Both the position numbers and the translations under genes were made by a program. A DNA stretch of 64,000 nucleotides from Yamagishiella unicocca (lineage: Eukaryota; Chlorophyta; Chlorophyceae; Chlamydomonadales; Volvocaceae): assembly GCA_003116995.1 (NCBI GenBank), contig BDSL01000020.1, positions 434,001-498,000 on the forward strand. Reading direction: 5' to 3'. Position 1 is the first letter of the stretch, and each line of letters starts with the position of its first letter. Below the pieces are notes generated by a model, which saw only the letters and a list, made by a program, of their open reading frames with translations, was not told the origin of the DNA and made no database searches. This document shows positions 8,130-32,634 of the stretch, piece after piece.

Positions 8130-10095
8130 TTTAGCTGAAGGTGGCGCCGAATTTTTGGTGTAGTTAATACAAACTGAAAATGAAAAGGAATATCTAATTG
8201 CGGTATACCAAATCTACATAATATTGTACACAAAGATTTGCCAAATTGATAAATGACAGCGTGAAGGTACGAAGTCAACGAGTGAAACTCTACGCACCAA
8301 TATTACTCCTACAACCAGTACCGGCTTACAGCTACCAGGAGCCCTTGTCCATCTAGGGAAGCGGAATATTGCCGATTGACGGCCGGCGCCCGCCCTTCCA
8401 AATCCAAGCCCTAGACCGAGCCCTACTATGGCTTGCAGTAAGCGGAAATATAATGGAGCCACTTTCGGAAGTGCACATGGATGTCTTGGATCTTGCATAA
8501 TGCGTCAACTGGGTGCCTCGAGGAAGGCGATATTGTCGTTGTACGAGTAGGCCAAGTCAAGTACCGGTGTCGGTACTCGCCGCGAACAACTGCTTACTGC
8601 ACTAGGCCAGCACCAGATTTACAGCATAAATGGGGCTGTGCTGGTGCTTGCATGCATTCATGGACGGGGCCACGCGGTGGCTGCAGGAAAGGCCTGGAAG
8701 CGACCAGGAGGCGATGGCGGACGCACGCACTTTCCAATGTGCGGGCATCCTTGCAGGTTCCTGCTAAGCCGCGTCCCATGCATTGCACGCATTTGCACCA
8801 GTAATAGGCAATTATGAATTATCACGGTAAACACACATCGCGCCTTTGACCCTGCTGGCATACTGACTTAAAAACCCCAGAATCTTCATACGTGTCATTC
8901 ATGCACAGGACCACCTGCACAGCGGCAAGCGGAACCACCAGTCACGCTAGGAAGCACACGCACGCATGTGGCTGGGTCGAGCACCGGGACAGTAAGCAGG
9001 GCCCAAGTGGGGCCGGATGCGGTGCGGCGCGGTACGGACAGCGCGGGAGGTGTGCGGTACGATGTACCAGGGATGCCGGTACGCGAGGAAGGAGGGAAGG
9101 TAGCCATGTGCTGGGGCTACCGACGTCGTCACCGCTGTCATCAGCGGGATTTGGCGGGATTGCTTCGAGCGTGCAGATGCGGAAATCCGTGAGAGCAGTA
9201 CCTAGCCTGGTTATGGGGCGGGGGCGGCTGTTGCAGCAGCGATGCGGGGGGGAAGGGAGAGGCGTGCGGCAAAAACATACGGCTGACGTGTGCTTTTGGT
9301 TGTTGGGGCTTTGCGGGACCGCGGGAACAGTAAAAGATTATCTTCATGGGTAATGTGATGCTCAGGAGCGACCTTCTGGCTGGGAGTACACGGGAGTACC
9401 AGTATGCCCGAAGCGTTTGGAGGGGCGGTGACGACGACCCTGCTTGTTACACACCCCACTGCCGTGTCGTTCGACTGCTACCGGTAGCAGCCCTAGCTTG
9501 GCAGCTACGTACGGCACTCCGCATCGCCGTATCGCTGCTCCGATACGACCTAAACGGCATGGGTCCCAGTACCACCGGCGCCGGCAACCAACGCAGGTCA
9601 GCTCAACCTTCCTCGGGCCGTTGGGTGGCCTGAGAATCTTAAAACCCTGGTTGCGGGCAGCACCAAACGCACAACCACACTTCGGCGCCTCTCCGGCCCC
9701 CCTGGAGAGCTCCGTCCCTTACCCGACCAATCTTCTTAACATCAGCCAATTGTTGGGACTGGGAAGCCCGAGATTAGTGGTGGCGCGGTTGAGCCGACAG
9801 CCCGCCGACGGGCCACATCCACAGGTTTCTCGCTAGTCAACCCAAGTTTTCCGGCATGCGCACTCGACCGCGTGTCCACAAAACTATGCGCCAGCTAGTT
9901 TCTGCCCTCCGTTTCCCATGTCATGTAACCCACCGCAACCTGCCACAACACGACCGCGCCGTCGTTCCGTCACACCGCCGCCGAACGGGCTTCCCTCACT
10001 CCACCCTGACGACTGACGACTGACGACCCCAACTCGTCAGATCGCAGCGCGGCTTGCACGCCATGGTGCGGTATGGCGGCGGGCGTCAATGTTTT
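8130..10095. other. Spacer between the MYB 5' end and the NEMF 3' end
   Basis: This probably contains the MYB promoter (minus strand, upstream of 8129) and distal 3' sequence of NEMF. No open frame here has a recognisable domain or phased splice partners. The segment about 8150-8300 is clearly more AT-rich than the flanking exons. Confidence 0.5.
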
Positions 10096-13400: not shown

Positions 13401-16400
13401 CGAAGCGGCAGGAGCCGCGGCGGCAGCAGCGGCGGCAGCGGCGGCGGCAGCAGCCGCTGCAGCAGCGGCGGCGGCGGCCTTGCCACCGCCCGCCTGCTGC
13501 CCAGCCTTACCGCCGCCCTTGCCACCCTGCTGATGCTGTGGCGGCGCCAGCGGCCCGCCCTTACCCCCCCCTGCAGCTGCTGCGCCCTTGCTGGGTCCCG
13601 GCCCCGGCGCCGGCCCCGGCCCCGAAGCCGGCCCTGCCGCCGCCGCCGCCGCGGCGGCAGCGGGCGGCGCTGCCTTGCCTGCAGCTCCCGCTCCAGCGGC
13701 TCCCTTGCCGGCCGCGGCGCCGGCGGGGCCCTTGGCGGCGGTGCCGCCGCCGCCCTTGCCGCCAGCACCTGCGCCCGGCGGCGGCGCCGGCGCGCCCGAG
13801 GCGACGATCGTGTATTCTTCATCCTCGCCGCCGCCGCCGGCGCCGCCGCCGCCGGCGCCTCCGACGCCTCCCTGCTTCTTCATCACTGCGCGCTCCTTCG
13901 CGCTGAGGTGCCTCCGGCCGGCGGCGCCGGCGGCGCCGCCGCGGCTTCCGGCGTCCCCACCCGCCGCCGCCGCCGCCGCGGGCTGCTCGTCCACTGCCGC
14001 CTCCTCATCGCCGCCTTGGTTGAGGCCGTAGCGGTCGTAGACCGCCGCTGCCGCGGCCGACGGCGCGGCACCGTACGGCATGTCGTACGACCCCTCAAGG
14101 AAGCGGTCGAGTGGTGACGGCGCCGCGCCGGCGGCGCCGGCGGCCCGCCGGCCCGACGCTGACGCCACCGCCTGCTGGGTGAGGCCGTCGTTGTTGCCGG
14201 CGCCGCCGGCGGCGTCCTCAATGGGATCGTCGTCCGGTATCTCCACTGTGGTGCCGTACACAGGACGCGGCAGGGTGGGCCGTAAAGTTATAATGGATTG
14301 TTGGGGGATGGGCACAGGACGCGGCAGGGTGGGCCGTAAAGTTATAATGGATTGTTGGGGGATGGGGACGGGAGAGAACAGAAGCTGGCGGCGTAGTAAG
14401 GCAAGACAATATTTTCCTCTTTTCCACACTGCAGGGCCACGCCCCAAAGACCAACTGTCTAACCGAACCGCACGTGCACCACCAACCGTCCCGTCCCGTC
14501 CCGCCCACCAGCTCACCGTCCTCTTCAGCGTCCGACCCCCCGCCGGCGGGCCCGCCGTACGCCGGGCCCGGCCCGCCCACCACTGACGCCGCATCCGGGT
14601 CCAACCCGCGCACCGCCCTCTCGCCCAGGTGGGCGGGGATGCTGCTGTCGTCCAGCCTGTTGGCGGTTGGGCGGTTGGACGAGGTGACATGTGGGTCAGG
14701 TGCGGGATGGCTGGGTTTTGGTTGGGCCACACGGTTACTGCGGTCGAAACCCCTCTGCCTCTTGCTTTCACTCCGCCCGCTGCTGGTCCTCCCTCCCACC
14801 CTCCCACCCACTGCAGGCAAACGCGTGCCCGAAAACAGTTCGTCGGTCGGCTATTCTCGTTCCTGCCCTCTGTCTCCTATGTCTTGTGACCGGGTCTTCT
14901 AGACAGACACCCCCCCTCACCCCTTCACCTGAATAGGAAGCCAAAGCCCATCACCAGCGGCTGCGGCGGCAGGAAGTTCTTCTTCCCGCGGATCATGAAG
15001 GAGCCAGTGACCAGGTACTCACCGGTGGGGGCGGTTTTGGAGACCTGCGGGTGGTGGTTGTGGTGGTTGTGGGCGGTTAGGACGTGCGGGGTGGTTAGGA
15101 TGGTTGTTGGTGCTGGTGAATCAGAGATGGGACGGTGTGGGAGGCGGACGGCCAGGAGGAGGGGGGGCGGCATAAACACCGGTTACGCGACGGAAGGCGG
15201 GGGCAAGCCCCAGAGCGCATCACGCAGCGCGAGGCTCTCCGAGTTGGGTCGTCGGTGGACAGGCCGGTGCCCCAGCCCTCAAACCAACACCCACGCCAGC
15301 AACCACCCCAGCAACCACACCCCAGCACCCACATCAGCAGCAACGCAGGCCCAATCCCCGGCCCCCGCTCCGGCTCCCCCCGCCGCCCCTCCCCCCCTCC
15401 AACTAGTTTCTGCCCTCCGTCTCGCATATCGTGTACCCGGTGTAACCATCCTCGCCCCATTCTCTCCTGCCCCCCTGGCTGCGCCCCGCCCCCTCCTCAC
15501 CTGGTTGTGGTGCACCCACCAGGCGCTGGTCACGATCTTGGAGTCCCAGGCGCGCGAGCGGCACATGCAGGCGCACCCGGCCTGCTGCAGAGTCAGCGGG
15601 GGAACGGGCTGGTCGGGGAAGGAGTTCTTGACGATGGTGGAGGAGGCGCCTGCGGGAGGGGGGGCCCGGTAAGGGGGATAGGGGGAGGAGGGGGGAGAGG
15701 AGGGGGAGGAGGGGGGAGGGGGTAAAAGGAAGCCCCGTGTGAGGGTGTGGGGGCTGTGGACGGGGCTGTGGGATGTGATGCTGGTGCTGATCTTGGAGGA
15801 AGGTGAGCATGGGGTGAGAATGGGATTTGCGTTCAGGTGTGTGGCGAAAAGGTACTGAACGGGTGGCGGTTCCTTTCCAAGCGAGCTTGTGCCCATCCAT
15901 CCCCTCTTCCCCCCTCTAGTACCTATCCGCCCCCCCCCCTCCTCCCTCTCCCCCTCCTCCTCCCCCTCCTCCCCCTCCTCTTCCTCCTCTTCCTCCTCTT
16001 CCTCCTCCCCCTCCTCCACGGGCTTCCTCTTGTAACCCCAACCCACCCCTCCTCCTCCTCACTCCCCACCCCTCCTCCTCCTCCTCCCCCCCTCCGTCCG
16101 TGCGTACCGTGCAGCTCCGCGTGTACGTACACGTCCCCCTTCCTGAAGTACCTCTTGACCAGCAGCTCGTTCTGCTGCGCGTCCCGCCCCGAAACCACCA
16201 GGTAGTTCTCGGAGGAGATGAACCAGTGGAAGCGCTCGAACCACATGGGCTTGCGCACGGGCTGGAGCGCGGCGGGGGCGGAGCGAACCTGCGGGAGGGG
16301 GGGGGAGCGGGGCCGAGGGGGACGGAGGTTGGGGGAGGGGGAGGAAACCCGTGGGTCGGCACTCCAGAAATTAGTGAACTCGACTGTGCAAGCCTGGGAC

Positions 16401-19400
16401 ACTCGTTGTTTTGCGTGCTGGAGAGCTTGCCACAAATATTTAGGAGTTGGTGTTTAACGGTTTTATATGGTTTTACGATTTACGGTTTTAGGGTTTTACC
16501 GTTTTAGGGTTTTAGGGGTGGTAGCCTGGAGTGAGTGGTGGCCCCTGGCCGGGTCCCCTGTTGGCTGCCCGCTATCGCCCCCCTCTCCTCCACCGCCGCA
16601 ACCTACTACCAACCCAACCCAACACCAATCAGTCGGCGGCAGGCTTCCGAGAAAGGGACTCTCGGGACCAGCCGGCGCATCACCACTGGCAGCTGCCAGT
16701 CGCCATGACGGGAGTGACATCGTTGCCGCCCCACCTCCGTAACCCACACACCCATACCCCCCCCACCCCACGGGATGGGTTTCCCTCGCATATCCCCATC
16801 GCACCCCACTACAGCGCAACCCAGCGCACCCCAACACCCCCACCTGCTTGAGCTGCGCCTCCGCCTTCTTCTCCGCCGCCGCCAGTGCCGCCTGGTTCGC
16901 CGCCACCGTCTTGCCATGCTTGGCCAGGTGGCGGCGGCGGGTGTCGAAGTAGGCGGAGGCGTTGGCGTGGGCGGACAGGGACAGGTCCACAGGCACCTGC
17001 ACCAGGGGGGGCCGGGGCAGGGGCAGGTAGAAAAGGACCGGTTAGTCGACATGGGAAGCATAGCGGAGGCACGCTGAAGCAGCAGCTTGGGTGCCAGGCG
17101 CTGGGTACGAAGGCACGCGGCAAAGGGGAAACAGGGTACGATGCGGCACGACGAACAAGGCTTGGTTTACGAGCCGCCACCCCGCACCCCACACCCCGCC
17201 CCCACCTTGACAGCCTTCCTGGTCATCGCCTCCTCGTCCCCGTCGTCACCCAGGTCGTCCAGGCTGTTGGCCAGCATCAGCGTCACGCCGTTGTCGGGCA
17301 GCTGCAGCGACACGATGAGCGAGGCGACTGGGTTGCCAGCGCGGCGCTCGTCCCGAATGAGGGTCTCCAGGTCGGACCAGTCCATGCCTGGGGGGGGGGG
17401 AGAGGAGGGGTGGCATGAAAATCGTTGACGCGAAAAGAACAGGATAGTTGGCGCATGGTCGGCGGACATATAGGAGAGGAGAGGTGGAGTGGGGGGTAAA
17501 GGATAGTCCGCGAATTCACGGCCGACAAACCAAGGGCGATTTAGGTGGTGGTCCAGGGTGCGGGGGGGTTGCGGTGCGGGGAGGGGAGGGGTGCACCAGG
17601 CAGGGAGCAGCGGGTGTTGGGGTTCTGGTCTCACGGTCATGGTGTAGGGGGGTGAGGGGGGTGAGGGGGGTCCGGGGGGTAACGGGGGGGTGAGGGGGGT
17701 TAAGGGGGGGTAAAGGGGGTAAGGGGTGTAAGGTGGGTTGAGGTGGGGTGAAGTGGGTTGAGGTGGGTTGAGGTGGGTTGAGGTGGGGTAAGAGGGGGTA
17801 AGGGGGGGGTGAGGGGGGGGTAAGGGGGGGTTAGGGAGGGTGAGGGGGGTGAGGGGTTCTCGCCAGGTGTGGGGTAGGGGTGATTCGTGGCGCGCATGCG
17901 ACACACGCCCATACCGGCATACCGGACGCGCACTCCCACCCCCGCGCTAGCAGGCACGTCCCTTGCTTCCTTGGTAGCTGCAGTCAGCCCACCCCACACA
18001 CCCGGCCCGGGCGGTCCCCACCTGTGGCCAGCGACTGGTTGACTGCCGCCAGCGCCGCATCCACTGCCTCCAGGTTGTAGGTGATGAGCTGAGCCTTCAG
18101 CTCGCACTCGTCAGCCTGGCGGAGGAGGGCCTCGGCGCGGGAGCCCTGCGGGGAGGCGGGGGGTTACAATGAAAGAACCGGTAACTCGACGGGGGAAATG
18201 TAGCGGGTGCATAGCGGCCGGGGGGGGAGAGGATGGCGAGGGGTAAGAGGCGGGGGGGGAAGGAGGGGGTAAGAGGCCGGGGGGAAGAGAAGGGAGTAAG
18301 AGGCGGTACTTATTACGACCATATGGTCTGGAGGCCAGCCCGCGAGGAGGCATCCTTGCCTCCGCCGTACACCGATTGAGTCCGCGGCTTCCGAACTTCC
18401 CGGGTGCTTCTTCCTTTCTTTCTTGTTTCCCAACCAATCGACCGTGTGGAGCCGGTGGAGAGCGGTGGAATCCGTTTCCTGAACCACCCGCCAATGCAAC
18501 TGCATCCACGAGTTCCCTCAGGACCCCCACCCCCTCAACCCCGGGTAACCGGTTCATCTTTGTAACCCCCCCAACCCCGCAGCACCTCAAAACCCCCCTC
18601 CGCCCCCTCGCCCTCACCCCCTTACCTCCCGACATACACACCTTCATCCCCACCCCACCCCCCAGCTACACTTCCCATGCCCGAGTAACCGGTTCTTTTC
18701 TGTAACCCACCAGCACACCCACCCACGCACCCACCCACCCACACACCTGGTCCAGCTTGATCTTGTCCAGCCGCGACATCGCCGCCTTCTCCGCATCCGC
18801 CCGCGCGATGTCCACACGCTGTCCCTCCACCTTGGAGAAGAACTCGTCCAGCCCGTCATCAAAGGTAGGCAGCTCCAGGCAGGGCTGCGCGGCGTACGGC
18901 AGCAGCGGCAGTGGGTTGAACTCCGCGAACACCAGCTCGCCGGCGGCGACCGCCGCCGCGGCGGCGGCGGAGTCCAGCGGCGGCGCCGCCGCCGCTGGCG
19001 GCTCCGGCGGCTCCGCCGGCTTCGCGTCCTCCTTGGCGCCCTTCTTGTCCTTCTTCTTTCCGGCCTTGGCGCTGCTGCCTGAGTGAGGAGGCGGGAGGTG
19101 TAAGGCCCGGGAGTGAGCGAGAGGCGTAAGGCCCGGGTGCGAGCGAGGGCTACCGGGCGGTAGGGACAGGCAGGCGCAAGGCCACCGCGGCCCCCACCAC
19201 CACACACGCAAAGTCATCCACCAGGGTCACACGCCCCCTCGTTATCTCAGATTATCGCAGATTGCGCTCTCCAGCCACAGGCAGCGCCCCCCCCTTCCCG
19301 GTGTTCATGCCCCCCCCCGCCCCCCGGTATGTTCCGGGCATCCACGGGTCTCCCTCGAACCGCCCCCCGGGGACTCGGGAGCACGGGTTTGTCTGCTGCC

Positions 19401-19625
19401 TGCCCCCTCCCCCCCCCCCAAACACCCCGCTACATTTCCCCAGTCGCGTTACCGGTTATTTCATGTACCCCCCACCCCGCTGGCCTACCCGGCGCGGTGA
19501 GGGTGATGTAACCCCGCGGCACCTCCCCCGCCTCCAGCCGGGCAAACCAGTCGTCAAGACGCCCCAGCGCCGCCAGCAGCGCCTTCCGTACATCCTCGGC
19601 AAGCACGCCGCTGGGGACAGCCGCC

Positions 19626-19657
<32 letters not shown>

Positions 19658-22600
19658 CGGCGAGGTAGCGTCTGCGGAAGCCTCCGCAGCGTCGCCGTCA
19701 GCCTCGTCCTCCTCACCTCCGACGCCCAATCCGACGCCGGCGGCGGCGGCGCCGCCGTCGACGGCGGCGCCGTCAGGCGTGGCGGCGGTGACGGCGGCGG
19801 CGGTGGCGGCTGCGGCGGCACCGGCGGATCCCTCCGGCGGGGGAACCAACGCGACGGCGGCGTTGGGGTCTAGGCCGGCGTCCATGACCACGTGCTCCGC
19901 AATGGTGGGCCCGTACGGAAGTACGGCAGTGATGAGCGCTGCGCGGCGGCGGAAGGGGGGTTCAAGTTCGCGAAAGTTTGTTCCGGGACCCAGCAGCGAC
20001 AGCGCCCCCAGCCCCCCACGCGCTCAGCTGCAGCACCTCGCCGTACCATCACCGCCGTCAACCCCTGCCTTCCCAACTCGCCCTCCCCCCCTTTCCCTAC
20101 TCGGTTACTCATTCCACGGGCTTTCCTCAACCCCGCCACTCCCCCCCGCACCCTCGGTTGTCCAACTTCTCAGTGCCGACCCACGGGTCACCTCCCATAC
20201 CCCCCCGCCACCCCCCGCACCCTCGGTTGTCCTACTTCTCAGTGCCGACCCACGGGTCACCTCCCATACCCCCCCCCCGCCCCCCCCCGCACCCTCGGTT
20301 GTCCTACTTCTCAGTGCCGACCCACGGGTCACCTCCCATACCCCCCCGCCACCCCCCGCACCCTCGGTTGTCCTACTTCTCAGTGCCGACCCACGGGTCT
20401 CCTCTCATACCCCCCCCCGCCACCCCCCGCACCCTTGTAGTTGGCCGCCCTGCCCACCGCCCCGTCCAGCTGCTCCCCCGTGATCGTGGTCGCCAGCCTC
20501 ATCGCCGCCATGGGGTAGGGGTGCCGGGCCATGATGACCAGGCCCTTGTCGTCATCGCGGTGGGAGCGGAGCAGCGTCAGCACCTCGTAGTTGGTGTCGG
20601 TGAGCACGATGTTACCCTGGGGGGGGGAGGGGGGGTAAGTGATAGGCGGGGATTCGAGGGAGACCCGTGATAGGCGGGGATGGGAGGGGGTTGCGGCAGG
20701 GTGGTGGTAGAGGCTAAGTGTTTTAGGAGGCGGCTGGCCAGCCCGGGGGTCCCAAGGGCACAACGCGTTTTCGATCAAACAAAAAAGAAGGCAAGAGCCC
20801 TGGGGGTTTCAGGGTTGGGGTTTTAGGGTTTTGAAGGTTGTTTAAAAGGTTGTTTGGGATTCTTTTTAGGGTTTAGGTTCGTGTCCGGGGCTCACCTGGG
20901 CGTACATCTCGAGGATGAGGTGCACGGCACCGGGCCCCGACCCGAGGGTCAGCTCCATGCAGCGGTCCACCCCCAGCTGCCGCACCGCCTCCACGCGCCG
21001 GGTGCGGCAGTGCTTGCGCAGCTTGAGGGTGAAGTTGGAGGGCAGCTCGGAGGACTTCTCGCGCAGGACCTGGGCGGCCGGGGAGTGGCGGAAAAGCCCC
21101 GGGGGCCGGGGGCCGGGTACGGAGGTGAGTGTGTGTATGTGTGTGTGTATGTGTGTGTATGTGTAGTTTGTGTTCCCCCCCTCGTCATTCGCCGCTTGTG
21201 CGCTCGGAGCTCATCCCGTGCGAGCCCGCGTGCGGTCCCAGGCGGCGGTGCACTCTCCCCCTCAGACGAAGATCAGACCCTCCTCGCGATTCCACGTATC
21301 CGCTCTCTCCTCTCCCGCATCCTTTTTCCTCTTACACTCTCCCAACACTACTACAAACCCTACAATCCATCCAGCCACCCATCCAGCCATCCACCCAGCC
21401 CTCTACCCAGCCACCCACCCAGCCACCCACCCACCCACGCCCATGGGGAGTGCCTCAGGGCCGGGCAGGGCCGGGCAGGGCAGGGAGGGTGGCTGGGCGG
21501 CAGGGTGGGCGAGGCGGGGGCTCTCAAAAGCCAACTCCTGTCCACCCTTTCTTGCCCTAGGGAACCCCTCTGCCGATGTCCTCTACCTCCTCCCCGCCCC
21601 TTCCCACCAAACGATTCCCAATTGGGTTTTACCACTCCTCAGTGCCGACCCACGGGTCTCCTCCCATTACCCCCCGCCCCCCGCACCTTTGTCGTATGGA
21701 ACCTGGATCCGCTCTCCAGCAGCAGGTACACCTTCTCGCCATCCTCGCCGCTGCGTGCAAGCTTGACGACGTAGGTCTGGGGCGAGGGAAGAGCGGGGAG
21801 GGGGGAGGGGGGTTAGCAGAAAAGGGGAGAGGGGGGAACAGGGGGAGGGTTGTGTGGGGGGGCCCCTCAGCCCGACTCAGCACCCTGGGTGGCGGGTACC
21901 GCTGATGGAGCTCGTGGATGACCCATGGGTCCCCCTCCGCCTCTCGACACCAGTGCCCCTCCGCTCTTCATTGATGTACACACTCTCCTGCGTGCACCCC
22001 CACCCGCCTGCGTGCACTCTCTCCCTCCTGCGTGCATCCCCTCCCGCCTACGTGCGCCCCTCCTCCCCCGACCCACCACCGCCCTCCCGCCCCGCTGCTG
22101 TGTCCCACCGCACTGAGCACACTCGCCCTGCAGTGTCGGCCTGAACACCCAATGCACGTGATGAATGGCAACACACCCGGCGGCACCGCTCGCGGCGGCC
22201 CACCCAGCAACCCGATGAGGCCCGACACATCGGCCGCCGCTTGGGCTGGCCTTCCCGGCTGAGCGGCTCGACTAGTCCACACACACACGGACACACACAC
22301 ACACGGAAAAAAACACACGGACACACTGGTAGGTGTAACTGAACCCACCCGCTGCCGGCTCCGATCGTCGTACTGGACCGCGCACGTGCCCCCAAAACCC
22401 TGCCTAACCGCCCCTCCTCCCCGCCTCCCGGGCTCCCCCGCCCTCTCTACCCCCCACGCTGTCCTGCACTCGCTTCCCCTCCGCCCCCCTCCCGGCGTCA
22501 CACCCACCTGTCTACCCAAGTGGTCGCCCCTAGCCCCACCCCCTCCCACCTCCTCCCCCCTTCCTCCCCGCCCCCTCCCCTTCCCCCGCCCCCTCCCCCC

Positions 22601-22711
22601 CACCTTGGGCGTGAGGTCATATATGTTGGCCACCCGCAGCCCCAGGATGCGCTGCCGCAGGCAGGCCACCTCGGCCGCCACGTCAGCACTGCTCATCCGC
22701 TGCTTCACCAT
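10495..22711 (-). CDS. NEMF: NEMF/Rqc2-family ribosome quality control factor
   Basis: NEMF/Rqc2 binds stalled 60S subunits, recruits the Listerin ligase and directs CAT tailing. Phased exons: 22711-22604, 21776-21687, 21069-20896, 20616-20433, 19938-19489, 19078-18747, 18145-18022, 17387-17206, 16996-16844, 16288-16108, 15649-15501, 15044-14929, 14656-14517, 14245-13347, 13125-12970, 12223-11902, 11244-11041 and 10739-10495. This gives about 1402 residues, against about 1076 in human. NFACT-N holds D10 and the D101-R102 pair in QLGVDR, known to be needed for CAT tailing. A coiled-coil region follows. NFACT-R is nearly textbook: [43 protein letters not shown]. The C-terminal domain ([20 protein letters not shown]) is intact. 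Exon 14 is a roughly 300-residue Ala/Gly-rich insert, which explains the extra length. A Lys-rich exon probably lies near 12690-12760 but its borders could not be resolved. Confidence 0.95.
11331..11366 (+). repeat. Intronic repeat family E, copy 1
   Basis: Core GAGAATCCGCGAATCC followed by ACGGCTGACAAACCGAGGGC. It lies in the NEMF intron between exons ending at 11902 and beginning at 11244, on the acceptor side. Relative to the gene it is inverted. Confidence 0.85.
11379..11450 (+). repeat. Intronic repeat family B, acceptor-side copy in NEMF
   Basis: CCCGGTTACATGACATAGGA, then GATGGAGGGCAGAAG, and further on TTTTCGGACACGC. The same order of blocks recurs in inverse gene orientation on the donor side of the NEMF intron starting at 14928. 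Confidence 0.8.
11698..11830. repeat. Degenerate 5-mer/10-mer repeat (CACTG/TACACTGCA)
   Basis: Runs of CACTGCACTG, ACACTGCATT and CACTACAGCA in the NEMF intron preceding the exon at 11244. It is imperfect and appears to have expanded by slippage. Confidence 0.85.
12243..12346. repeat. Direct duplication of a ~38-bp block
   Basis: GGGGCCGTTGCTGACAACAC followed by GGCAACACACGGTTG occurs at about 12246 and again about 62 bp later, just upstream (gene sense) of the NEMF exon beginning at 12223. Confidence 0.9.
12489..12620. repeat. 35-bp tandem repeat, about 3.5 copies
   Basis: Units contain GGCGGGGGAGGTGGTGCGAC followed by ACCGGCAGTAGC. They lie in the unresolved NEMF intron region between exons at 12970 and 12223. 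Confidence 0.92.
13283..13320 (-). repeat. Intronic repeat family B, donor-side copy
   Basis: On the minus strand it reads CCGGTTACACGACATCAGAA then ACGGAGGGCGG, within the first 70 nt of the NEMF intron that follows the exon ending at 13347. Sense orientation at the donor. Confidence 0.8.
14260..14367. repeat. 54-bp tandem duplication next to an NEMF splice acceptor
   Basis: Two near-identical copies starting ACAGGACGCGGCAGGGTGGG at 14260 and 14314. They begin about 15 nt from the acceptor of the NEMF exon starting at 14245. Confidence 0.92.
14818..14900 (-). repeat. Intronic repeat family B, donor-side copy with extended block
   Basis: On the minus strand: CCCGGTCACAAGACATAGGA, GACAGAGGGCAGGAAC, then GTTTTCGGGCACGCG. 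It starts about 30 nt after the donor of the intron following the exon ending at 14929. It matches the 11379-11450 copy block for block. Confidence 0.82.
15055..15500 (-). mobile_element. Candidate introner: NEMF intron with inverted terminal motifs
   Basis: The donor side (about 15405-15450, minus sense) carries GGGTACACGATATGCGAGAC and GGAGGGCAGAAACTAG. The acceptor side (15169-15192) carries GCATAAACACCGGTTACGCG in the opposite orientation. The two ends are therefore related and inverted, though divergent. Inferred to be an introner-like intron; no transposase is encoded. Confidence 0.45.
16342..16366 (+). repeat. Intronic repeat family C copy
   Basis: GGAAACCCGTGGGTCGGCAC about 55 bp from the acceptor of the NEMF exon starting at 16288, inverted relative to the gene. 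The same core begins NEMF introns at 21686 and 20432 in sense orientation. Confidence 0.8.
16486..16517 (+). repeat. Interstitial telomere-like octamers (TTTTAGGG)
   Basis: Four contiguous octamers: TTTTAGGG, TTTTACCG, TTTTAGGG, TTTTAGGG. They lie in the NEMF intron between exons 16844 and 16288 and are preceded by degenerate versions from about 16460. TTTTAGGG is the Chlamydomonas-type telomere unit. Confidence 0.85.
17413..17460 (+). repeat. Intronic repeat family A copy, acceptor side, NEMF
   Basis: GCATGAAAATCGTTGACGCG then ACAGGATAGTTGGCGCATGG, 25 bp from the acceptor of the exon at 17387 and inverted relative to the gene. It closely matches 30494-30540 on the donor side of a peptidase intron. 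Confidence 0.85.
17502..17537 (+). repeat. Intronic repeat family E, copy 2
   Basis: GATAGTCCGCGAATTCACGG then CCGACAAACCAAGGGC, in the NEMF intron upstream of the exon at 17387. Inverted relative to the gene, acceptor half. Confidence 0.83.
18146..18746 (-). mobile_element. Candidate introner: NEMF intron 6 with ~47-bp inverted repeats
   Basis: The intron between exons 19078-18747 and 18145-18022 has related blocks near both splice sites in opposite orientation. Donor side (18708-18662, minus sense): GGGTTACAGAAAAGAACCGG, TTACTCG, CATGGGAAGTGTAGCTGGG. Acceptor side (18162-18208, plus sense): GGGTTACAATGAAAGAACCG, GTAACTCGAC, GGGGGAAATGTAGCGGG. Roughly 85% of about 47 positions agree by eye. 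A third partial copy sits at 18542-18568. Terminal inverted repeats within an intron are the hallmark of DNA-transposon-like introners. No coding capacity was seen, so any mobility would be non-autonomous. Confidence 0.6.
19429..19470 (-). repeat. Intronic repeat family A copy, donor side, NEMF intron 5
   Basis: On the minus strand: GGGTACATGAAATAACCGGT then AACGCGACTGGGGAAATGTA, starting about 18 nt after the donor at 19488. Sense orientation. Confidence 0.88.
20141..20431 (-). repeat. ~70-bp tandem repeat x4 carrying donor-like sequences
   Basis: Four units in NEMF intron 4 share, in gene sense, GGTGCGGGGGG, then GGAGACCCGTGGGTCGGCAC (or GGTGACCCG...) and TGAGAAGTAGGACAACCGAG. Each new unit begins again with GAGGGTGCGG, resembling the true donor (AAGGGTGCGG) at 20432. 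NEMF intron 2 (donor at 21686) starts with a single copy of the same block. Confidence 0.9.
20821..20876 (+). repeat. Second interstitial telomere-like patch
   Basis: TTTTAGGG followed by TTTTGAAG and, 30 bp on, TTTTTAGGGTTTAGG. It lies in the NEMF intron between exons 21069-20896 and 20616-20433, about 20 bp from the donor. More degenerate than the patch at 16486. Confidence 0.65.
21639..21686 (-). repeat. Family C block at the donor of NEMF intron 2
   Basis: Immediately after the exon ending at 21687 the intron reads GTGCGGGGGGCGGGGGGTAA, then GGAGGAGACCCGTGGGTCGG and CACTGAGGAG. This is essentially the same intron start as intron 4 (20432), although the exons are unrelated. Confidence 0.85.
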
Positions 22712-23065
22712 CCTGGCAGCACGTGCTCCCGCTCCTCCCGCTCCTGCTACCGCTCTTCCTCCCTTTCCTCCTCCTCCTCCTCGCGCTCCCGCTCCTCCTC
22801 CTCCCTCGCCTCCTCCTCCTCCGAGTGAGAAGCCGCCCCCTCCGCCTCCTCGCGAGGGACCGCTGCGGCTAGCGGTCTGAGGGCCGCTGGGCGCGGATCA
22901 CCGCCGCGGCACAGTCGCCGTGGCGCCGGTGCTGCCCGGGCCGCCTGTCAGCTACAGCCGCCTGCCCAGCTACAGCCGCCTGCGCAGCTGCTCGCGCCCA
23001 CCTGCCGCTCGTCGCTCGTCCTACCCGATGCTGCTGCAGCGCTGTGGCGTGATGTGGTTTGGGCG

Positions 23066-23160
23066 TGGGTGTAGTTGGGCTGGGTTGGGTTGGGTTGGGT
23101 TGGGCTGGGTTGGGTTGGGTGCGGTTGGGTTGGGTGCGGTTGGCGGTTGGCGGTTGGGGG
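23066..23160. repeat. GGGTT/GGGCT pentamer-rich tract
   Basis: Runs of GGTTGGGTTGGGCTGGGTTG, strongly G-biased on the plus strand, in the 5' flank of NEMF. Confidence 0.85.
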
Positions 23161-23280
23161 TGGGGCAGGTGGCTAGGGGAAAGGCGGGTGGCATGGGGCG
23201 GTGCAGGCTGGTTGGCACCGTGTGAAGTGGACCATGGGGAGGACGCTGCGGTGCGGTGGTGGTAGCGGCGGAACTAGTGA

Positions 23281-23359
23281 CGGAACCAAGTGGCGGAACC
23301 AAGTGGCGGAACCAAGTGGCGGAACCAAGTGGCGGAACCAAGTGGCGGAACCAAGTGGA
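23281..23359. repeat. 13-bp tandem repeat x6
   Basis: Unit GGCGGAACCAAGT is repeated six times almost perfectly, about 570 bp upstream of the NEMF start codon. Confidence 0.95.
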
Positions 23360-25558
23360 CAGGGTGGGTATGGGTAGAGCGGTGGGGAATGTGGAGGAGT
23401 TGTGGGCTGCGTGGGAATGCAAGGGGAGTTGGCGCGCATGTTTGGCGACGGGGCTGCAGAGTGCCCAGCAGTCCCCCCTGCCGCCCGCTTGCCCTCAACA
23501 TCCCCCACGCCGCAAGCAGATTGGCAAGGCCTAGTCTGTTATTGTAAGCGCTTAGTTGCCGTCGCAGCCGACCCTCGCACGGTCTGCGTCAGCAGCAGGT
23601 TGCGTCGGGAGGCGGCGGAGAACAGCTGCCATCCATTGATATATGATTTTTGCTTTCCGACTTATATAAAGCACACTCGTAAGTGCGTTCGCTTTTGCTA
23701 TGAGCAGCTTAAATTTGAGGATGGTTCTGGCCGATCGCCGCAGCGCACTGACCTTTTCCGGTCGGGCTACCAGCTCCCTGCCACCAAGAATCAATCTATT
23801 GTATTGCGTTCCGAAAGCAAGGAAATTTGCAGTGATCTGTGCTTGTTTCAGATTTGGCACAACCGTGGGAGAACGTAAGATAGGTTTCGTTACAGACAAT
23901 ACGAGTTTGATCAACGCACTTATTTCCAATGCTCGTAGAATGGTAAAATATCAGTGGACCGTTTGGCCTGCGCCGATCCGATGGAACCTGTGAACGGTTC
24001 CAACAGCTTTCTGACTAGCTGCCTCTACCTTAAACCTACCTGTGGTGCGCAGACATAGTAGCTCCCCTTAATCATTTGCAAGGGGGGTAAATCGTTATAG
24101 TCAGGAAGGTCCACAGATGTTGGAATGCAGTTCACGCAACGTGCTCTTTGTGCCTGGCACTGGCTTAGCTCATGTGTAAGATCCGAAACAGCCTAAGTTC
24201 TGAAAAATATAAAGGTGACACATTTGTTGAAGCGTGTCTTCAACTAGAGGAAGACGCCTGCCCGCCGCCACCGGCGCCATCGATTCACGTTTACAGCCCA
24301 CAAAAATCACCAGCATACGCGGGCGTGAGGTTCCGGGCTCCAATTGGATAGACAACGGACGTACTTTAGGCAAAACCACGGCAAAGCCCGCTAACAACAC
24401 GGCAAGCTGAGCTGGGTACTAGGCCTCCGATTTCTACCACCAGACAGCGGGGCACGCAACGTAGCACATGGAGTGACACCCGGCTGAAAGGCAAACCCTG
24501 AAGGGGCTGACTGGTATTGGAACATGCTTGTAGGGGCTAGTATAGGCTAGCTGGGTCCCGAGGAAGGGGATATGGGCAACGCTGGCAGGGAATATAAGGA
24601 CTCCCACCTGCTCCCAACTACTATCAATATCCGCGTCAGAAGCGTGAGCCTGCATGTGGGTGGCCAGTGTTAGTCGGGCATACCCTGGCACACCGCGCCA
24701 TGGACCGTTATGTACTCCCTGGATTCTCGAGGACCAGGCTAAAACAGGCTAGAAGCATGCACCTGCGTGCATAATCGGCGAGGTAGAAGCTGGTAGAAGG
24801 CAGTATGGAAGGCAGATAGGTTGCGAGGTAACGGCTCAGAAACACACTTTCATGCTCTGAATGGCGTCATTTGTGCACTTGCAGCTTTCCTGCGGCCTCA
24901 AGCGAGGGTAAGCGAAGCTTTTGAGGGGGCCACGGGGTAGGCTGATCACAGCGTCCCTGGTGTGCCGTACCCGGGCTTCGTTGCATCCGTCCTTATTTTG
25001 CTGGCGTAGAAGGCGAAAAACCCAACTGGATGCGGATTAACAAGGGCTGCGGTATAGAACATGGGTATCAGGCAAGCTCTCGCGCTCTGGGCACGCTAGG
25101 ACACAGCTAGACACCAACTTGCAGGAGCCAACCATAAATCACAACATGACACACGTCGATCATCCTTTTCAAAGAAGCGATATGATCTCCAGGCGTGGTG
25201 CAAGCTGATGTGTGTGAACGGTGTGTTGAACACTAGATTATCCGCATTCGCTATCCCCCAAATAAACATCCGCAATAGGGCATTCGCAATTGACGACTGC
25301 ATTCTACTTTTTCCCTTTCAATACAGCAGATCATTTTATGGTACACAGGAACGCAGCACTTAGAGGACGGCTTCGTACCGACCGTGTCAGTTATTATATC
25401 GCTCGTTCTTATGCCATAGTGAACCGGATATAGTCTCTTACCGTGCATCCTGTTGATGCTTTACAACATAACATTGCTGAAGCGCCGTGGTCAATTTGAT
25501 CAAGTTCACGGACAGGTGTGGTGGTGTCCTTCCATTGTCGCGCTCCAATCAACAGCCG

Positions 25559-28500
25559 ATGCTCACATCCGTATTGCAGCGCAGCAATTGTCTGCCCATC
25601 GCTGAGAGCAGTCGGGTGCTCCGAGTCGCCATCGGTGCCGCGCCAGGCCACACGTTCACATCCCGCTCCCTAGCAACCATCGGAATGGGCGGCCGCAACA
25701 GCAAGCACCAGAACCAGCAGCGTAACCCTAGCCAGCGCGGCAGGGCTGCTGCGACGGCGGTGGAGGTCCCTACGGAGCCAGCCAAGGTAAGGATGGTGAT
25801 GCTGTGTCCATCCCATATGCGGTCGCGCAAGAGTCGCGGCATGTTGCTGACTGCGCCTACGTCACAACGTCTTTGGACGCCCCTTTCCTGGTCCCAGCGC
25901 GTAGAGGCACATATTAGCCCAGCATGCGGCGTATGTTTGGCCCCCACCCCCAGCCATCGTCCGGGCACGGAACACGGCCTGCATCTGATCCTTTTGTCGC
26001 CGATCGCATGTCTCTCTATGGATTGGTTTCTACAGGGCGGCAGTCGGATATGTGGGGGTATGCAAGGGAGCCTCAGCCCTTGCCGCCCCAATGACCCCGA
26101 CCGCCGAACCGTCCAGCCAGCGCCCTCCCCCCCCCCCCCTACGCCCAACCGCACATGCCACGCCACGCGGCAGACCCCCTCACCACCCGCCGCGCCCTCA
26201 CCCCCTGCCTTCCCGCATTCGACCGCCGTACGTGTACGGCACCAGGCGTACGATGCGCTGTGCGAGCGGCTCAAGGAGATCTCCGCGCTGCAGGGCATTA
26301 GCGGCCTGCTGGACTGGGACGAGATGGTGGGTTGGGTTGGGCTGGTTGCGGTTGGGTTTCGGAGCGGCGGGACCCGGGCGTCTTACCCCGGATGTGCCCC
26401 AGAGGAGAAGCGTGGGGGAATGATCCGTGCGTGGGGAGGTTGGAGGCTTACCCCGCGGTCGTAAGCAGCTGCATGCGGCCGGGGACGCACTCGCCGCATC
26501 TGCGACCTGACGAGCCACGATGCCCGTTGCTTGGTGGGAGGTGCGCTGGGGGTGTAAGTGGCGAAGAAAACCGCGTTAACGACGTAGGAGGAGGCGAAGC
26601 GACCGGCGATAGCGCGGTGGGGTGTGTGTGTGTTGTGTGTGTGTTTGGGGGAGGGGGTCAGCTCTCTCGACCGACATTATTATCGTCTTGTTGTGCTGCA
26701 TACGGCCCGCAGACGGTTGTCTGGTCGTACGCTGCGTCTCATTAAAGTACAGGAGGGCCCGCTCTCTCCACCACCCCACATCGCATACTACTGATCAGTG
26801 CACGGATGTCATCAGGGGCGCTACCGCTCACTACCCCCCGCTCACTGACCCCCGCTCATTGACCCCCGCTCACTGAACCCCGCTCACTGAACCCCGCTCA
26901 CTGCCCCCGTCCGCCGCCCCCCCCACCCTTTCCCTCCCGCTCCCAGGTGATGATGCCCTCAGGCGCAGCAAACAGCCGCGGCACGCAGAAGTCCGCGCTG
27001 GCGGGGGTGCTGTACGACAAGGAGACCGAACCCCAGGTACGACATCGGCTCGGTGCGGGGGGAAGAGGGCGGGGAGGAGGGGGTTTCTGGAGGCGCCAAA
27101 CACCTTGTCCCCCCTCCCGGCCATACAGGGCCACTCATGCGACGACGTCCTCTCACCCCCCCCCCACCGCCCCCACACACCCCCTTCCCCCCTGCGTGGC
27201 TTGCTTGCTGCTTGCTTGCTGCTTGCTGGCTGGCTTGTTAGCTTTAGCTTCTACTTCTAACCCATCCTGTGTTGCTTGCTCGGTACCAGATTGGCGCACT
27301 GCTGGCGGTGCTCAAGGACGCGCCGGCTGGCAGCCTGGACGCGATCCAGGTGGGGGCCTTATGATGGGTGTGCATGTGTTTTAAGTAAGCTGTGTGTGTT
27401 TTAAATACGTGTAAGCTGTGTGTGTGTGTGTGCATGTGTGTGTGTGTTTTGAGTGCTAGGCTGCCGGCCGCATCTCGGCCCCCCCTTTGCCGCCCTCGGT
27501 TTGTCAGCCGTGGATTCGCGGATTCTCTTATCAACCCCCCTGCTGCACCGCACCGCTGCCGCGTGCCCAACTTCCACCGTCCGCATCCACGCCGTCGCCG
27601 ACGCAACCGTTGTCGTTGATCCAACTAACGAACCCTCAACCGACTCAACCACCGCGCAGGCTGCAGTGGTTCGCGACGCCAGCCGCAGCTACATCAAGCA
27701 GACCGCTCTGCCCAAGGTGAGTGGGGGGCGCGGACACCGGACGGGGGTGGGGTTGCAGAAAAGAACTGGTTACTTGACGTGGGAATTGTAGCTGGGGGTA
27801 ATTCTCCAGGCGGTATCCATCAGCCGTCCAGGGCGAAGGGGGGGATAAGTGTTAGTCCATCCCCCTTCCCTTCCCCTGCTCCCTGCTTGCGTGGTGGTCT
27901 GGTTCCGTAGCACGAGGACGGAGGTGGAGGCGAGCGGAGGCGTGGAGGAGGGGCGTGGCTGGCTGCCTGGCTGGCTGCCTGGCTGGGTGCGGCATAGGAT
28001 CCAGCAACGGGCGGATGCGAGGGCTCGGGGGGCTGAGGAGCCCATCCCTGGACCGCAGCCTTCTTGACAGCCTCCTGATAAAAACACACAGACGCGTGGG
28101 GCCGCCGTCACAACCCCCCGCGGCCCCCTCGCTTGTCCCCTCATCCCCCACAGGAGCTGGCCCAGCGTATCGCTCGCCTGAGGTCGGACAGCTACGCTGT
28201 GCGTGGGTGCTCCGAGGGGAACAAGCTACGGGCTGGGAGGCGGTGGAATGGGAGGCGGTGGAATGGGAATCGTCGCGGGAATGGGAATCGTCGCGGGACA
28301 GTGAATGGGCGGGTGCGGGGTTGCAAGATTGGCCAGGGAGCCTGCTAGTCGTAGTCTTGGATCTCGGCGTACCCGTGGTACGGCAGTTTGCCGCGCGGGT
28401 CATCAAAACCCTAACCCGCCATCGCCCCACCCGCAGGCCTGGGTCAAGGCCAAGCAGGAGAACGACTTCTCCTTGTTCGCGCCCTCCCTGAAGGAGTGGG

Positions 28501-31019
28501 TGGAGATCAGCAAGGAGAAGGCAAGGTGAGCCGATGGGAGGGCGGCTGGCCCTCCTCCTCCTTGCCTTCCTCCTTGCCTTCCCTCTTGCCTTCCTCCTCC
28601 CCGCCAACCCGCGCCGCCCCGCCGACGCTCCCCCCCTCTCCACCATTGTTGGCCCACGGGTTTCCTTCCTTTGGCCCGGCCTCCCCCTTCTCCACCCTGC
28701 CACCCCCACCCCACCGCACTACCCAAACCCCAGGCTCATCGACCCCTCAAAGCCCGCGTACGACGTGCTGCTGGACGACTACGAGAAGGGCCTTACGGGA
28801 GAGCGCCTGGACCAAGTTTTCTCGCAGGTGCGGTGCCGTACTGCACTGTACGGCGAACCTGCGCCCCTAGCCATCCAGTTAGGCTTCCAGCTTTTCCTTT
28901 TCGTTACGTCGCACTGTGTGTTGGTGCCCTGCCCCGCCACCGCCACTGCCGCTGCCACTGCCCTGGGGCCCCTCGTTTCTGCCCTCCGTCTCCTACGTCG
29001 TATAACCGGGTGTCCGCGCCACCCCCATCCCCGCCCGAAGCCTATGCACCAGCTACACCTCCCATGTCGGGTAACCGGTTCTTTTCTGTTAAACCCCCCC
29101 CCGCCCCCTTTTCTTCTCGAATACGTTGCCTTATCACCTTACACTACGATTCACCTCCCGGCGCCTTGTCCGCTGCGCCCCAGGTTCGTGAGGGTCTGGT
29201 GCCCTTGATCGCCGACATCAAGAGCCGGGGTCGCAAGATCGACACGACCTGGCTGGAGGGCGAGTACGATGTGGACACGCAGGCGGCGCTGTGCAAGAAG
29301 GTGCGGCGGGGGGGCGGGGCAACGGCGTGTGGGTTGTACGGGGCAAATAAAGCACGGGGTGGGGTGGCATAAAGACCGGTGACACGACATGGGTACAATA
29401 GCTGGCGGGGTGGGGTGGAGTGGAAGCTGGTGAAGCGGCGAAGAAGAAGGAAAGCTAGGCCCTCTCCCCCAACGTCGCCTAGCGGCTCGTGTAGCTTTTC
29501 TCCTCCTTCCCCCATGTCGTGCAAAGGGGTTTTCTCCCCCCTCCTCCCCTGGAGCCCAGGTGGCTCTGGACCTGGGCTTCAACCTGGACAACGGGCGGCT
29601 AGACGTGTCTGTGCACCCCTTCACCGGGGGGGCGCACAGCACGGATGTGCGCATGACCACACGGTTCAAGAAGGACGACTTCGTTGAGGGGCTCACGGGT
29701 GGGTGGGGGTGGGGCGGGAGGGGGGAGGGGGCGGGGCGGGGCGGGGCGAGGGCGGACCTGAGGGAACCTAGTGCGGTTGGTTGAGGGTGGGGCTGGTGGG
29801 TTGGGGGGTTCGAGGGAGACCCGTGGATGTCCGGGGGGAGTGCGGTGAGACCAGCCGTGGCACTGATCGGGGCGTGTGTCGCGAGGTACGACACCATATC
29901 ACGTGGCGGTCTGCCGTACAGGGGAAGGTAAGAACCCAAGCCCTTGCTAAATGCTCTACTTCCTTCGTTGGGGGCCATCCCGTCAGCCGGGCAGCCGCCC
30001 AGCCAGGGAGTCGCAGCTTGGGGGGAGGGGTCTCCTCGTCGATCCCGCACCAGCGGTCCCCTCCCCTATACAGCCCCTTCACTCGTAAAGTCCTGTTGCT
30101 TGCATACCGGCATACCGGCATATCCTTCGCGGCCCCCCCACCGTTTCCCGCCCCTTGCAACCAACAACCGCTCATCAACCATTAAACCCGACTCCTGTCA
30201 TGCCCCCTTTCAACCCCGCCCTTCGTCCCGCGCTCCAGGCGCCATCCATGAGACCGGCCACGCGCTGTACGAGCAGGGCCGCAATCAGGAGTACGACGGT
30301 CTGCCGGTCAACGCCGCGCTGTCCATGGGCATGCACGAGAGCCAGAGCCTGCTGTGGGAGCGGATGGTGGCGCTGTCCCCGAGCTTCGCCGAGTACCTGC
30401 TGCCGCTGCTGAAGGTGGGGGTTTCGAGGAAGAGAGGAAGGGGGGGGTGTACCTGCTGCTGCCGCTGCTGAAAGTAGGGGGTTGGGGCGGGTAGCATAAA
30501 AACCGTTTACGCGACAGGGACAGGATAGTTGGCGCATGGTCGTCGGACACCGATTTTGTGGGCGCATGCTGGAGCACTGGGTGTAGAGGGGGAGGGGGAG
30601 GAGGGGGCGCAGGTGCCAGGACGCGAGTGAGGCAGCGAAACGTGTTTACAGGTGGCGGGGCCAAAGCAACGAGGGAGTCCGAGCGGGACCACCGATCGGT
30701 CGGTGGGATGAAAGCCCAAGGGGGGGGGGGGCACGGCAGGTGGTCCTCTCTTTTTCTTGTTTCGGTCATCAGCGCCTCCACTCCATCCCTGCATGACGGC
30801 GCACCGGCCCTGCCACCTGCCTGCCCTCGTGTGTGTGTTGTGGTGTGGTGCGGTGTGGGCCCATCCCTCCCTGCCCCCCTCCCCTCCCTGCCCCCCTCCC
30901 CCCAGGAGCGCTTCCCCGAGCGCCTCGCCAGTGCCACCCCGGAGCAGCTGTACGACGCTGTCAACGTCATCACTGAGCCCTCCCTCATCCGCGTGGAGAG
31001 CGACGAGGTGGGTGGCGGA

Positions 31020-32179: not shown

Positions 32180-32210
32180 GTACAAAGAAGAACCGGTAGC
32201 TCGACATGGT
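32180..32210 (+). repeat. Family A copy downstream of the peptidase stop
   Basis: GTACAAAGAAGAACCGGTAG then CTCGACATGG, 80 nt after the stop codon, thus in the 3' untranslated region or an intron within it. Confidence 0.8.
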
Positions 32211-32502: not shown

Positions 32503-32634
32503 GGAATGCATATGCAGTGGCAGCGGTGGCAGCCATGTCTCATTGCTAGGAATGCATATGCAGTGGCAGCCATGTATATGCAATGTATAGGCAGGAATGC
32601 ATATGCAGTGGCAGCCATGTCTCATTGGCGGAAC
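32503..32634. repeat. Imperfect direct repeats (GAATGCATATGCAGTGGCAG)
   Basis: Three copies of GAATGCATATGCAGTGGCAG, two of them followed by CATGTCTCATTG, in the space between the convergent peptidase and LEA genes. Confidence 0.92.

What the first reader, a model, noticed from the sequence alone, without database searches (positions are those of the whole stretch)
15055..29559. Introns of unrelated genes share inverted end-motifs: candidate introner family
Sequence shows: the AACCGGTTACGCGAC-type motif and its relatives recur at about 14 or more sites in or next to introns of NEMF, the M32 peptidase, the F-box/LRR gene and the PA14-like gene. Donor-half copies are in gene sense (19429, 18664, 27751, 29366, 30491, 39439). 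Acceptor-half copies are inverted (18163, 17413, 15169, 29046, 45061, 62777). That is the pattern of terminal inverted repeats. Known: introners in Micromonas, dinoflagellates and other eukaryotes are TIR-bearing elements that insert as spliceable introns. Inference: a non-autonomous element has seeded or colonised many introns here. Exceptions: copies after two stop codons (32180, 47123) and a weak sense copy late in cyclase intron 3 (about 51275).
Basis: partly seen in the sequence, partly recalled or inferred. Interest (0 to 1): 0.9.

Follow-up and report, generated by a model that had tools for sequence, protein, structure and literature searches.

The report
G-tract retroposons that mimic introners
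In the sampled DNA of this green alga, the repeated motifs at intron ends are mostly independent, one-end-truncated mobile-element fragments rather than the two ends of one intron-making element; they were likely copied from RNA and likely primed on G-rich tracts, which are common just inside intron ends.

Summary
In detail: all 12 named intron-end copies are recovered in introns in the stated orientation, and the genome has 5,448 matches to the 15-mer against 478 for a reversed control. The introner reading does not hold. Copies have a fixed end beside a G-rich stretch (144 of 161) and a ragged other end. Outer and inner flanks match each other better than swapped flanks (158 of 167 copies testable, 0 of 10,000 permutations); 45 copies have clear 7-25 nt duplications, for example a perfect 21-nt pair at 38668-38730. 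Of those 45, 39 lie wholly inside one called intron, so there the intron existed first. Only 11 of 92 copy-bearing introns have copies in both orientations, and only 2 of the 11 share a subfamily. Eight related subfamilies behave alike. On the opposite strand they are 5'-truncated elements with a fixed 3' end, as expected of target-primed retroposons. Introns start G-rich and end C-rich, which explains much, not all, of the mirrored orientation. The partner enzyme and the full-length element were not found. New variant of a known kind.

The parts
38668..38730 (+). 22-nt fragment of subfamily G (38690-38711) between two identical 21-nt copies of TCTTGGGTTGGGTTGTGGGGG, inside a called intron of the F-box/LRR gene region; clearest truncated insertion in the window
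62331..62496 (+). subfamily D copy (62348-62472), antisense to the called gene, with a 19-nt imperfect duplication
39418..39560 (+). subfamily B copy (39440-39538), sense, donor half, with a 22-nt imperfect duplication
29355..29418 (+). subfamily A copy (29365-29407), sense, donor half of an M32 intron, with a 13-nt exact duplication
30492..30581 (+). subfamily A2 copy, sense, donor half of M32 intron 30415-30905
27753..27809 (+). subfamily B copy, sense, donor half of M32 intron 27717-28153
29035..29091 (-). subfamily B copy, antisense, acceptor half of M32 intron 28828-29183
28972..29012 (-). subfamily C copy in the same intron and orientation as the B copy beside it
32181..32209 (+). short subfamily B copy downstream of the M32 stop codon
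26246..32098 (+). M32 peptidase gene, 14 hand-read exons; the gene finder adds an upstream exon and, in one run, an exon extension
18662..18705 (-). subfamily B copy, sense, donor side of a NEMF intron (donor called at 18710; by my reading at 18748)
18164..18220 (+). subfamily B copy, antisense, acceptor side of the same NEMF intron; one of the two same-subfamily pairs
17399..17487 (+). subfamily A2 copy (17411-17470), antisense, acceptor side of a NEMF intron, with a 15-nt duplication (one mismatch)
19426..19467 (-). subfamily B copy, sense, donor side of a NEMF intron
15169..15191 (+). weak subfamily A copy, antisense, acceptor half
9797..9930 (-). subfamily C copy; 134 nt match other copies in the genome
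45058..45108 (-). subfamily B copy (45066-45094), antisense, acceptor side, with a 12-nt duplication (one mismatch)
47110..47155 (+). short subfamily A copy (47122-47148) with a 13-nt duplication (one mismatch); gene context uncertain
62777..62862 (+). two A2 copies in tandem, antisense, acceptor side

Best explanation
The motifs are the fixed ends of short, one-end-truncated repeats that sit beside G-rich tracts, 45 of 158 tested with clear target-site duplications of their own, and they are likely 5'-truncated retroposons (SINEs or LINE tails) inserted by target-primed reverse transcription. Shown: one fixed end, usually after a G-rich stretch; a ragged other end; duplications of 7-25 nt that include the G-rich stretch; eight related subfamilies; nearly all sampled copies in called introns. 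Inferred: the RNA is complementary to the motif as written and ends C-rich; a nick leaves a G-tract 3' end that pairs with it and primes copying; early stops give the ragged end; repair gives the duplication. Introns here start G-rich and end C-rich, so insertions after donors read in gene sense and insertions before acceptors read antisense, which imitates terminal inverted repeats. Copies are more strictly oriented than G-tracts are, so selection on splicing or a further target feature probably adds to it.
For: Fixed end within 6 nt of the consensus start in 67 of 72 copies, inner ends spread over 28-113 nt (limited by consensus length); the same raggedness in all eight subfamilies. At least half G in the 15 nt before the fixed end in 144 of 161 copies against 29 of 161 random positions. 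Anchored duplication score 6.04 against 4.13 (sd 0.144) for swapped flanks, 0 of 10,000, 158 of 167 copies tested, 45 in the top 5% where 7.9 are expected; subfamilies D-G replicate A-C (the D-G run still held the tandem F array). Perfect duplications: 21 nt at window 38668-38730, 16 nt in L006, 16 nt in L013. 39 of the 45 wholly inside one called intron. Two-orientation introns 11 of 92, 2 sharing a subfamily. G-tracts away from copies are themselves 74-83% inward; their distance to splice sites and intron/intergenic ratio do not differ significantly from those of the copies.
Against: The partner reverse transcriptase was not found: three flanks read belong to chromodomain elements of LTR type and the LINE flanks could not be fetched. 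No promoter, tRNA relation or Rfam family; no convincing RNA fold in subfamily D. Only 45 of 158 copies have a clear duplication; unanchored scoring with G down-weighted is weak (35 and 112 of 5,000 permutations reach it). Duplications in G-rich DNA are partly compositional, which the swapped-flank control only partly removes. Copies are more inward than G-tracts (P 2e-6 to 0.004). The full-length element and its 5' end are unknown.
Confidence: 0.75

Rival explanations
1. TIR-bearing introners: a non-autonomous DNA transposon whose two inverted ends bring donor and acceptor regions inserted into exons and made these introns.
For: Strong mirrored orientation: 130 copies inward, 11 outward. One NEMF intron has the same subfamily at both ends. 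In four copies a duplication spans a splice junction.
Against: 81 of 92 copy-bearing introns have copies in one orientation only, and 9 of the 11 others pair different subfamilies; duplications flank single copies and 39 of 45 lie within one intron; inner ends are ragged; introns stay long without the copy.
Confidence: 0.04
2. DNA-level patching: fragments of a few repeats were captured at breaks in G-tracts during repair or replication (template switching), without a dedicated retroposon.
For: Strong G-tract adjacency, many very short pieces such as the 22-nt one at 38690, mosaics of several pieces in one intron, no partner reverse transcriptase identified.
Against: One fixed end per subfamily with the other end ragged and long, sometimes perfect duplications are hard to get from random patching.
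Confidence: 0.12
3. Intron-end signals: a structural or splicing element kept by selection, with donor and acceptor copies pairing across the intron.
For: Copies lie near splice sites and in complementary orientation.
Against: Only 11 of 92 introns could pair and 2 of these share a subfamily; in the four background samples most introns lack a copy (161 of 171); copies carry insertion duplications.
Confidence: 0.04

Closest known systems
Chlamydomonas SINEX-1 to SINEX-6 and their partner LINEs (RandI/Dualen, L1-1_CR), as tabulated in PMC3747384 (passages and table pieces seen)
   Same: Short non-coding retroposons of a related green alga
   Different: The tails listed there are (A)n, (ATT)n and (CTTT)n for SINEs, and A-, CA-, TAA-, ATT-type and similar for green-algal LINEs; no C- or G-tract end is listed. 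I could not compare the sequences themselves.
Introners (PMC9860276: abstract, passages and section 7 seen)
   Same: Short non-autonomous repeats in introns of algae, with target-site duplications in some families
   Different: No inverted ends, ragged far end, variable distance to splice sites, insertion inside existing introns
MITEs (definition as in passages of PMC12477314)
   Same: Short non-coding repeats in and near genes
   Different: No terminal inverted repeats seen in the subfamily consensus; duplications of 7-25 nt rather than a fixed short length
Microsatellite-targeting non-LTR and Penelope-like elements (recalled, from no call)
   Same: Insertion into a simple-sequence target that fits the element's end
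   Different: Target here is a G-tract or G-rich repeat, mostly in introns; elements are short and non-coding

Membership tests
Introner | insertion itself creates the intron, with splice sites in the element or its duplication | tested here: not met
   39 of 45 clear duplications lie wholly inside one called intron; introns stay long without the copy. Five called ones cross a junction, four of them after my reading of the NEMF donor; in the three whose sequence I printed (L006 donor, C2, L019) the duplication repeats the splice site.
Introner | intron absent from orthologues that lack the element | not testable with these tools
   no genome of a related alga could be searched
Introner | many introns highly similar over much of their length | tested here: not met
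   6.7% of sampled intron bases resemble another sampled intron (the sample is small and enriched for copies)
TIR DNA transposon / MITE | inverted repeats at both ends of one element | tested here: not met
   opposite copies rarely share an intron or a subfamily; inner ends ragged
TIR DNA transposon / MITE | target duplication of short fixed length | tested here: not met
   7-25 nt, median 15
Non-LTR retroposon (SINE or LINE tail) | fixed 3' end and variable 5' truncation | tested here: met
   (read on the strand opposite to the motif)
Non-LTR retroposon (SINE or LINE tail) | variable-length target-site duplications | tested here: met
   clear in 45 of 158 copies
SINE | polymerase III promoter or descent from a small RNA | tested here: inconclusive
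   no ARAGORN hit and no Rfam match above gathering score in four C copies; none in the window at gathering score; promoter boxes not searched systematically
SINE | defined full-length unit | tested here: inconclusive
   subfamily C reaches at least about 300 nt and D runs on past my model in at least two copies; no end found
SINE | 3' end shared with a partner LINE | not tested

The most novel reading that the evidence does not exclude
A retroposon superfamily that uses the G-tract next to splice donors, and the complementary C-tract before acceptors, as its priming site, and so duplicates splice sites: in L006 a perfect 16-nt duplication spans a donor, in C2 (L034) a perfect 15-nt one spans a donor, in L019 one spans an acceptor. 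It could be a source of the long introns of this algal group, and an insertion at an exonic AG|GTG-G-tract could make a new intron out of the two duplicate copies.
Probability: 0.15. Interest if true: 0.8.

Novelty: new variant of a known kind. Interest (0 to 1): 0.5.

Why it matters
It shows that independent insertions at composition-biased intron ends can imitate the inverted-end signature used to recognise introners, a warning for genome-wide introner screens. It offers a testable contribution to the long introns of core-Reinhardtinia algae, whose driver is left open in PMC8226300 (passages seen). And it gives a concrete target rule to test: a G-tract 3' end priming on an RNA that ends in C.

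Tried and rejected
Inverted-end pairing: rejected, two-orientation introns are few and of mixed subfamilies. A fixed element length: rejected on recheck. The sharp ends at query 112, 137-138 and 177 (13 of 39 non-self matches start at 173-179) can be the ends of the truncated query copies themselves, and one search shows copies on C26 and C50 running on past the last; so subfamily C is at least about 300 nt and no full length is claimed. Conserved fold in subfamily D: 8 pairs, one with a change on both sides, covariation term +0.53, not convincing. The chromodomain LTR elements as partners: only chance-level matches to their flanks (best E 0.42). First gene-finder settings over-predicted tiny exons and were replaced. 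The tandem F array at 20142-20435 gives false duplications; its copies were taken out before but were still. One search stopped on a printing error and was repeated. Nine paper searches listed no paper whose title or abstract describes this family; most subscription journals are missing and repeat databases could not be searched.
Full report
What was checked. The window is C20:434001-498000 of a 133.4-Mb genome in 1415 contigs. Its M32 protein is closest to volvocine algae among the 120 hits listed (79% identity to Volvox reticuliferus, 78% Pleodorina starrii, 77% Chlamydomonas reinhardtii), so the host is taken to be an unnamed volvocine-type green alga. The 15-mer occurs 17 times in the window (up to 3 mismatches) against 1.62 by chance and 5,448 times in the genome (up to 2 mismatches) against 478 for the reversed pattern.

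Gene structure. No annotation was at hand. I read 14 M32 exons by hand (one boundary corrected) and trained a small gene finder from them; its final form returns those exons exactly. It fuses some neighbouring genes, was not tested on an independent gene, and puts one NEMF donor at 18710 where I read it at 18748. All placements carry this uncertainty. Thirty of the sampled loci were chosen because they carry the exact 15-mer; only the window and the four 50-kb samples were chosen without regard to it, and the window itself comes from the finding.

Anatomy. Aligned copies share one constant end. In 67 of 72 copies it lies within 6 nt of the consensus start, while inner ends spread from 28 to 113 nt. 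The 15 nt before the constant end are at least half G in 144 of 161 copies, against 29 of 161 random positions in the same loci. All-against-all comparison of introns brought out four more subfamilies with the same plan (D, E, F, G). Seven of the eight consensus sequences, all but G, hold GCATGC further in. At 12 bits the eight profiles find 172 copies and none in reversed sequence.

Length. Subfamily C was walked outward: copies L054 and L057 share about 247 nt, and the tables together show copies of about 300 nt on C50. Sharp ends in single searches can be ends of the query copy, so I give no full length. Subfamily D copies L021 and L002 also look alike beyond the modelled 127 nt.

Duplications. 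If each copy is a complete insertion, the sequence before its fixed end should recur after its inner end. Of 167 copies (L022 and the tandem F array left out) 158 could be tested: mean score 6.04 against 4.13 (sd 0.144) with flanks swapped between copies, 0 of 10,000 permutations as high. Forty-five copies exceed 95% of swapped pairs, 7.9 expected. Their duplications are 7-25 nt long (median 15, mean identity 92%); 39 lie wholly inside one called intron, 5 cross a called junction, 1 is intergenic. Earlier tests on A-C and D-G agree. An unanchored test with G matches down-weighted is weaker: 35 and 112 of 5,000 permutations reached the observed value. The clearest window case is a 22-nt G fragment between two identical 21-nt copies of TCTTGGGTTGGGTTGTGGGGG (38668-38730).

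Why it looked like inverted repeats. Of 171 copies (L022 left out) 63 are sense in the donor half, 67 antisense in the acceptor half, 7 antisense in the donor half and 4 sense in the acceptor half; 22 are in introns cut by a locus end, 6 intergenic, 2 exonic. Without the tandem F array it is 59, 67, 7, 4, 22, 6 and 2 of 167. Introns without copies start G-rich (48% G, 18% C in the first 20 nt) and end C-rich (46% C, 24% G in the last 20), and G-tracts away from copies are themselves 74-83% inward. Distance to splice sites (P 0.23) and intron/intergenic ratio (P 0.07 to 1) do not differ significantly between tracts and A-C copies. The copies are nevertheless more inward than the tracts (79 against 3 for A-C; P 2e-6 to 0.004), which is not explained by tract position alone. 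Subfamily F leans to donors (15 of its 19 copies in complete introns, some from a tandem array).

Why not introners. Only 11 of 92 copy-bearing introns hold copies in both orientations, and 2 of the 11 share a subfamily. Introns with A-C copies stay longer than the others after the copy is subtracted (378.5 against 295 nt, P 0.004). Where duplications are clear they are mostly inside the intron. Comparison with orthologues, the decisive test, could not be made.

How it most likely works. On the other strand the elements have a fixed 3' end joined to a C-rich tract, a variable 5' end and variable duplications, which from general knowledge is the trace of target-primed reverse transcription. I infer that a nick exposes a G-tract 3' end, that this pairs with a C-rich RNA end and primes copying, and that copying often stops early. 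Whether the source is a SINE or the tail of a longer LINE is open. No tRNA or Rfam relation was found, and the three reverse-transcriptase elements examined are chromodomain LTR type.

A side effect. In L006 and C2 (L034) a perfect duplication spans the called donor, and in L019 one spans the called acceptor, so the splice site is present twice. This could give alternative splice sites and, in principle, new introns; neither was shown.

Known relatives. The Chlamydomonas SINEs and green-algal LINEs tabulated in PMC3747384 (passages seen) end in A-, T- or CA-type repeats, none in C. Introners are described in PMC9860276 (abstract, passages and section 7 seen). PMC8226300 (passages seen) reports unusually long introns in this group with an unknown driver. 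Nine paper searches listed no description of the present family by title or abstract.

Noticed in passing
window 20142-20435: Tandem array of a 69-nt unit (about 4 copies, 94% matches) that contains a subfamily F piece inside a NEMF intron: a retroposon fragment turned minisatellite.
   Followed up: partly
L006:1175-1248, L034:1336-1430, L019:1475-1540: Target-site duplications that span the called splice junction, so donor or acceptor is present twice.
   Followed up: partly
window against C2, C3, C4, C5:1000001-1050000: Copy density is very uneven: 28 of 65 called introns in the window, 10 of 171 in the four samples, none in C3.
   Followed up: no
subfamily F, sampled introns: F lies almost only on the donor side in gene sense (15 of 19 copies in complete introns, part of them one tandem array), while A leans to the acceptor side (22 of 33).
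   Followed up: no
whole genome: At least 150 reverse-transcriptase matches, many in near-equal long open frames (about 1,356-1,570 aa); three examined end in Tf2-type SH3 and chromodomains (LTR type).
   Followed up: partly
window 32503-32620: Tandem repeat of a 45-nt unit with ATGCATATGCAGTGGCAGCC downstream of the M32 gene.
   Followed up: no
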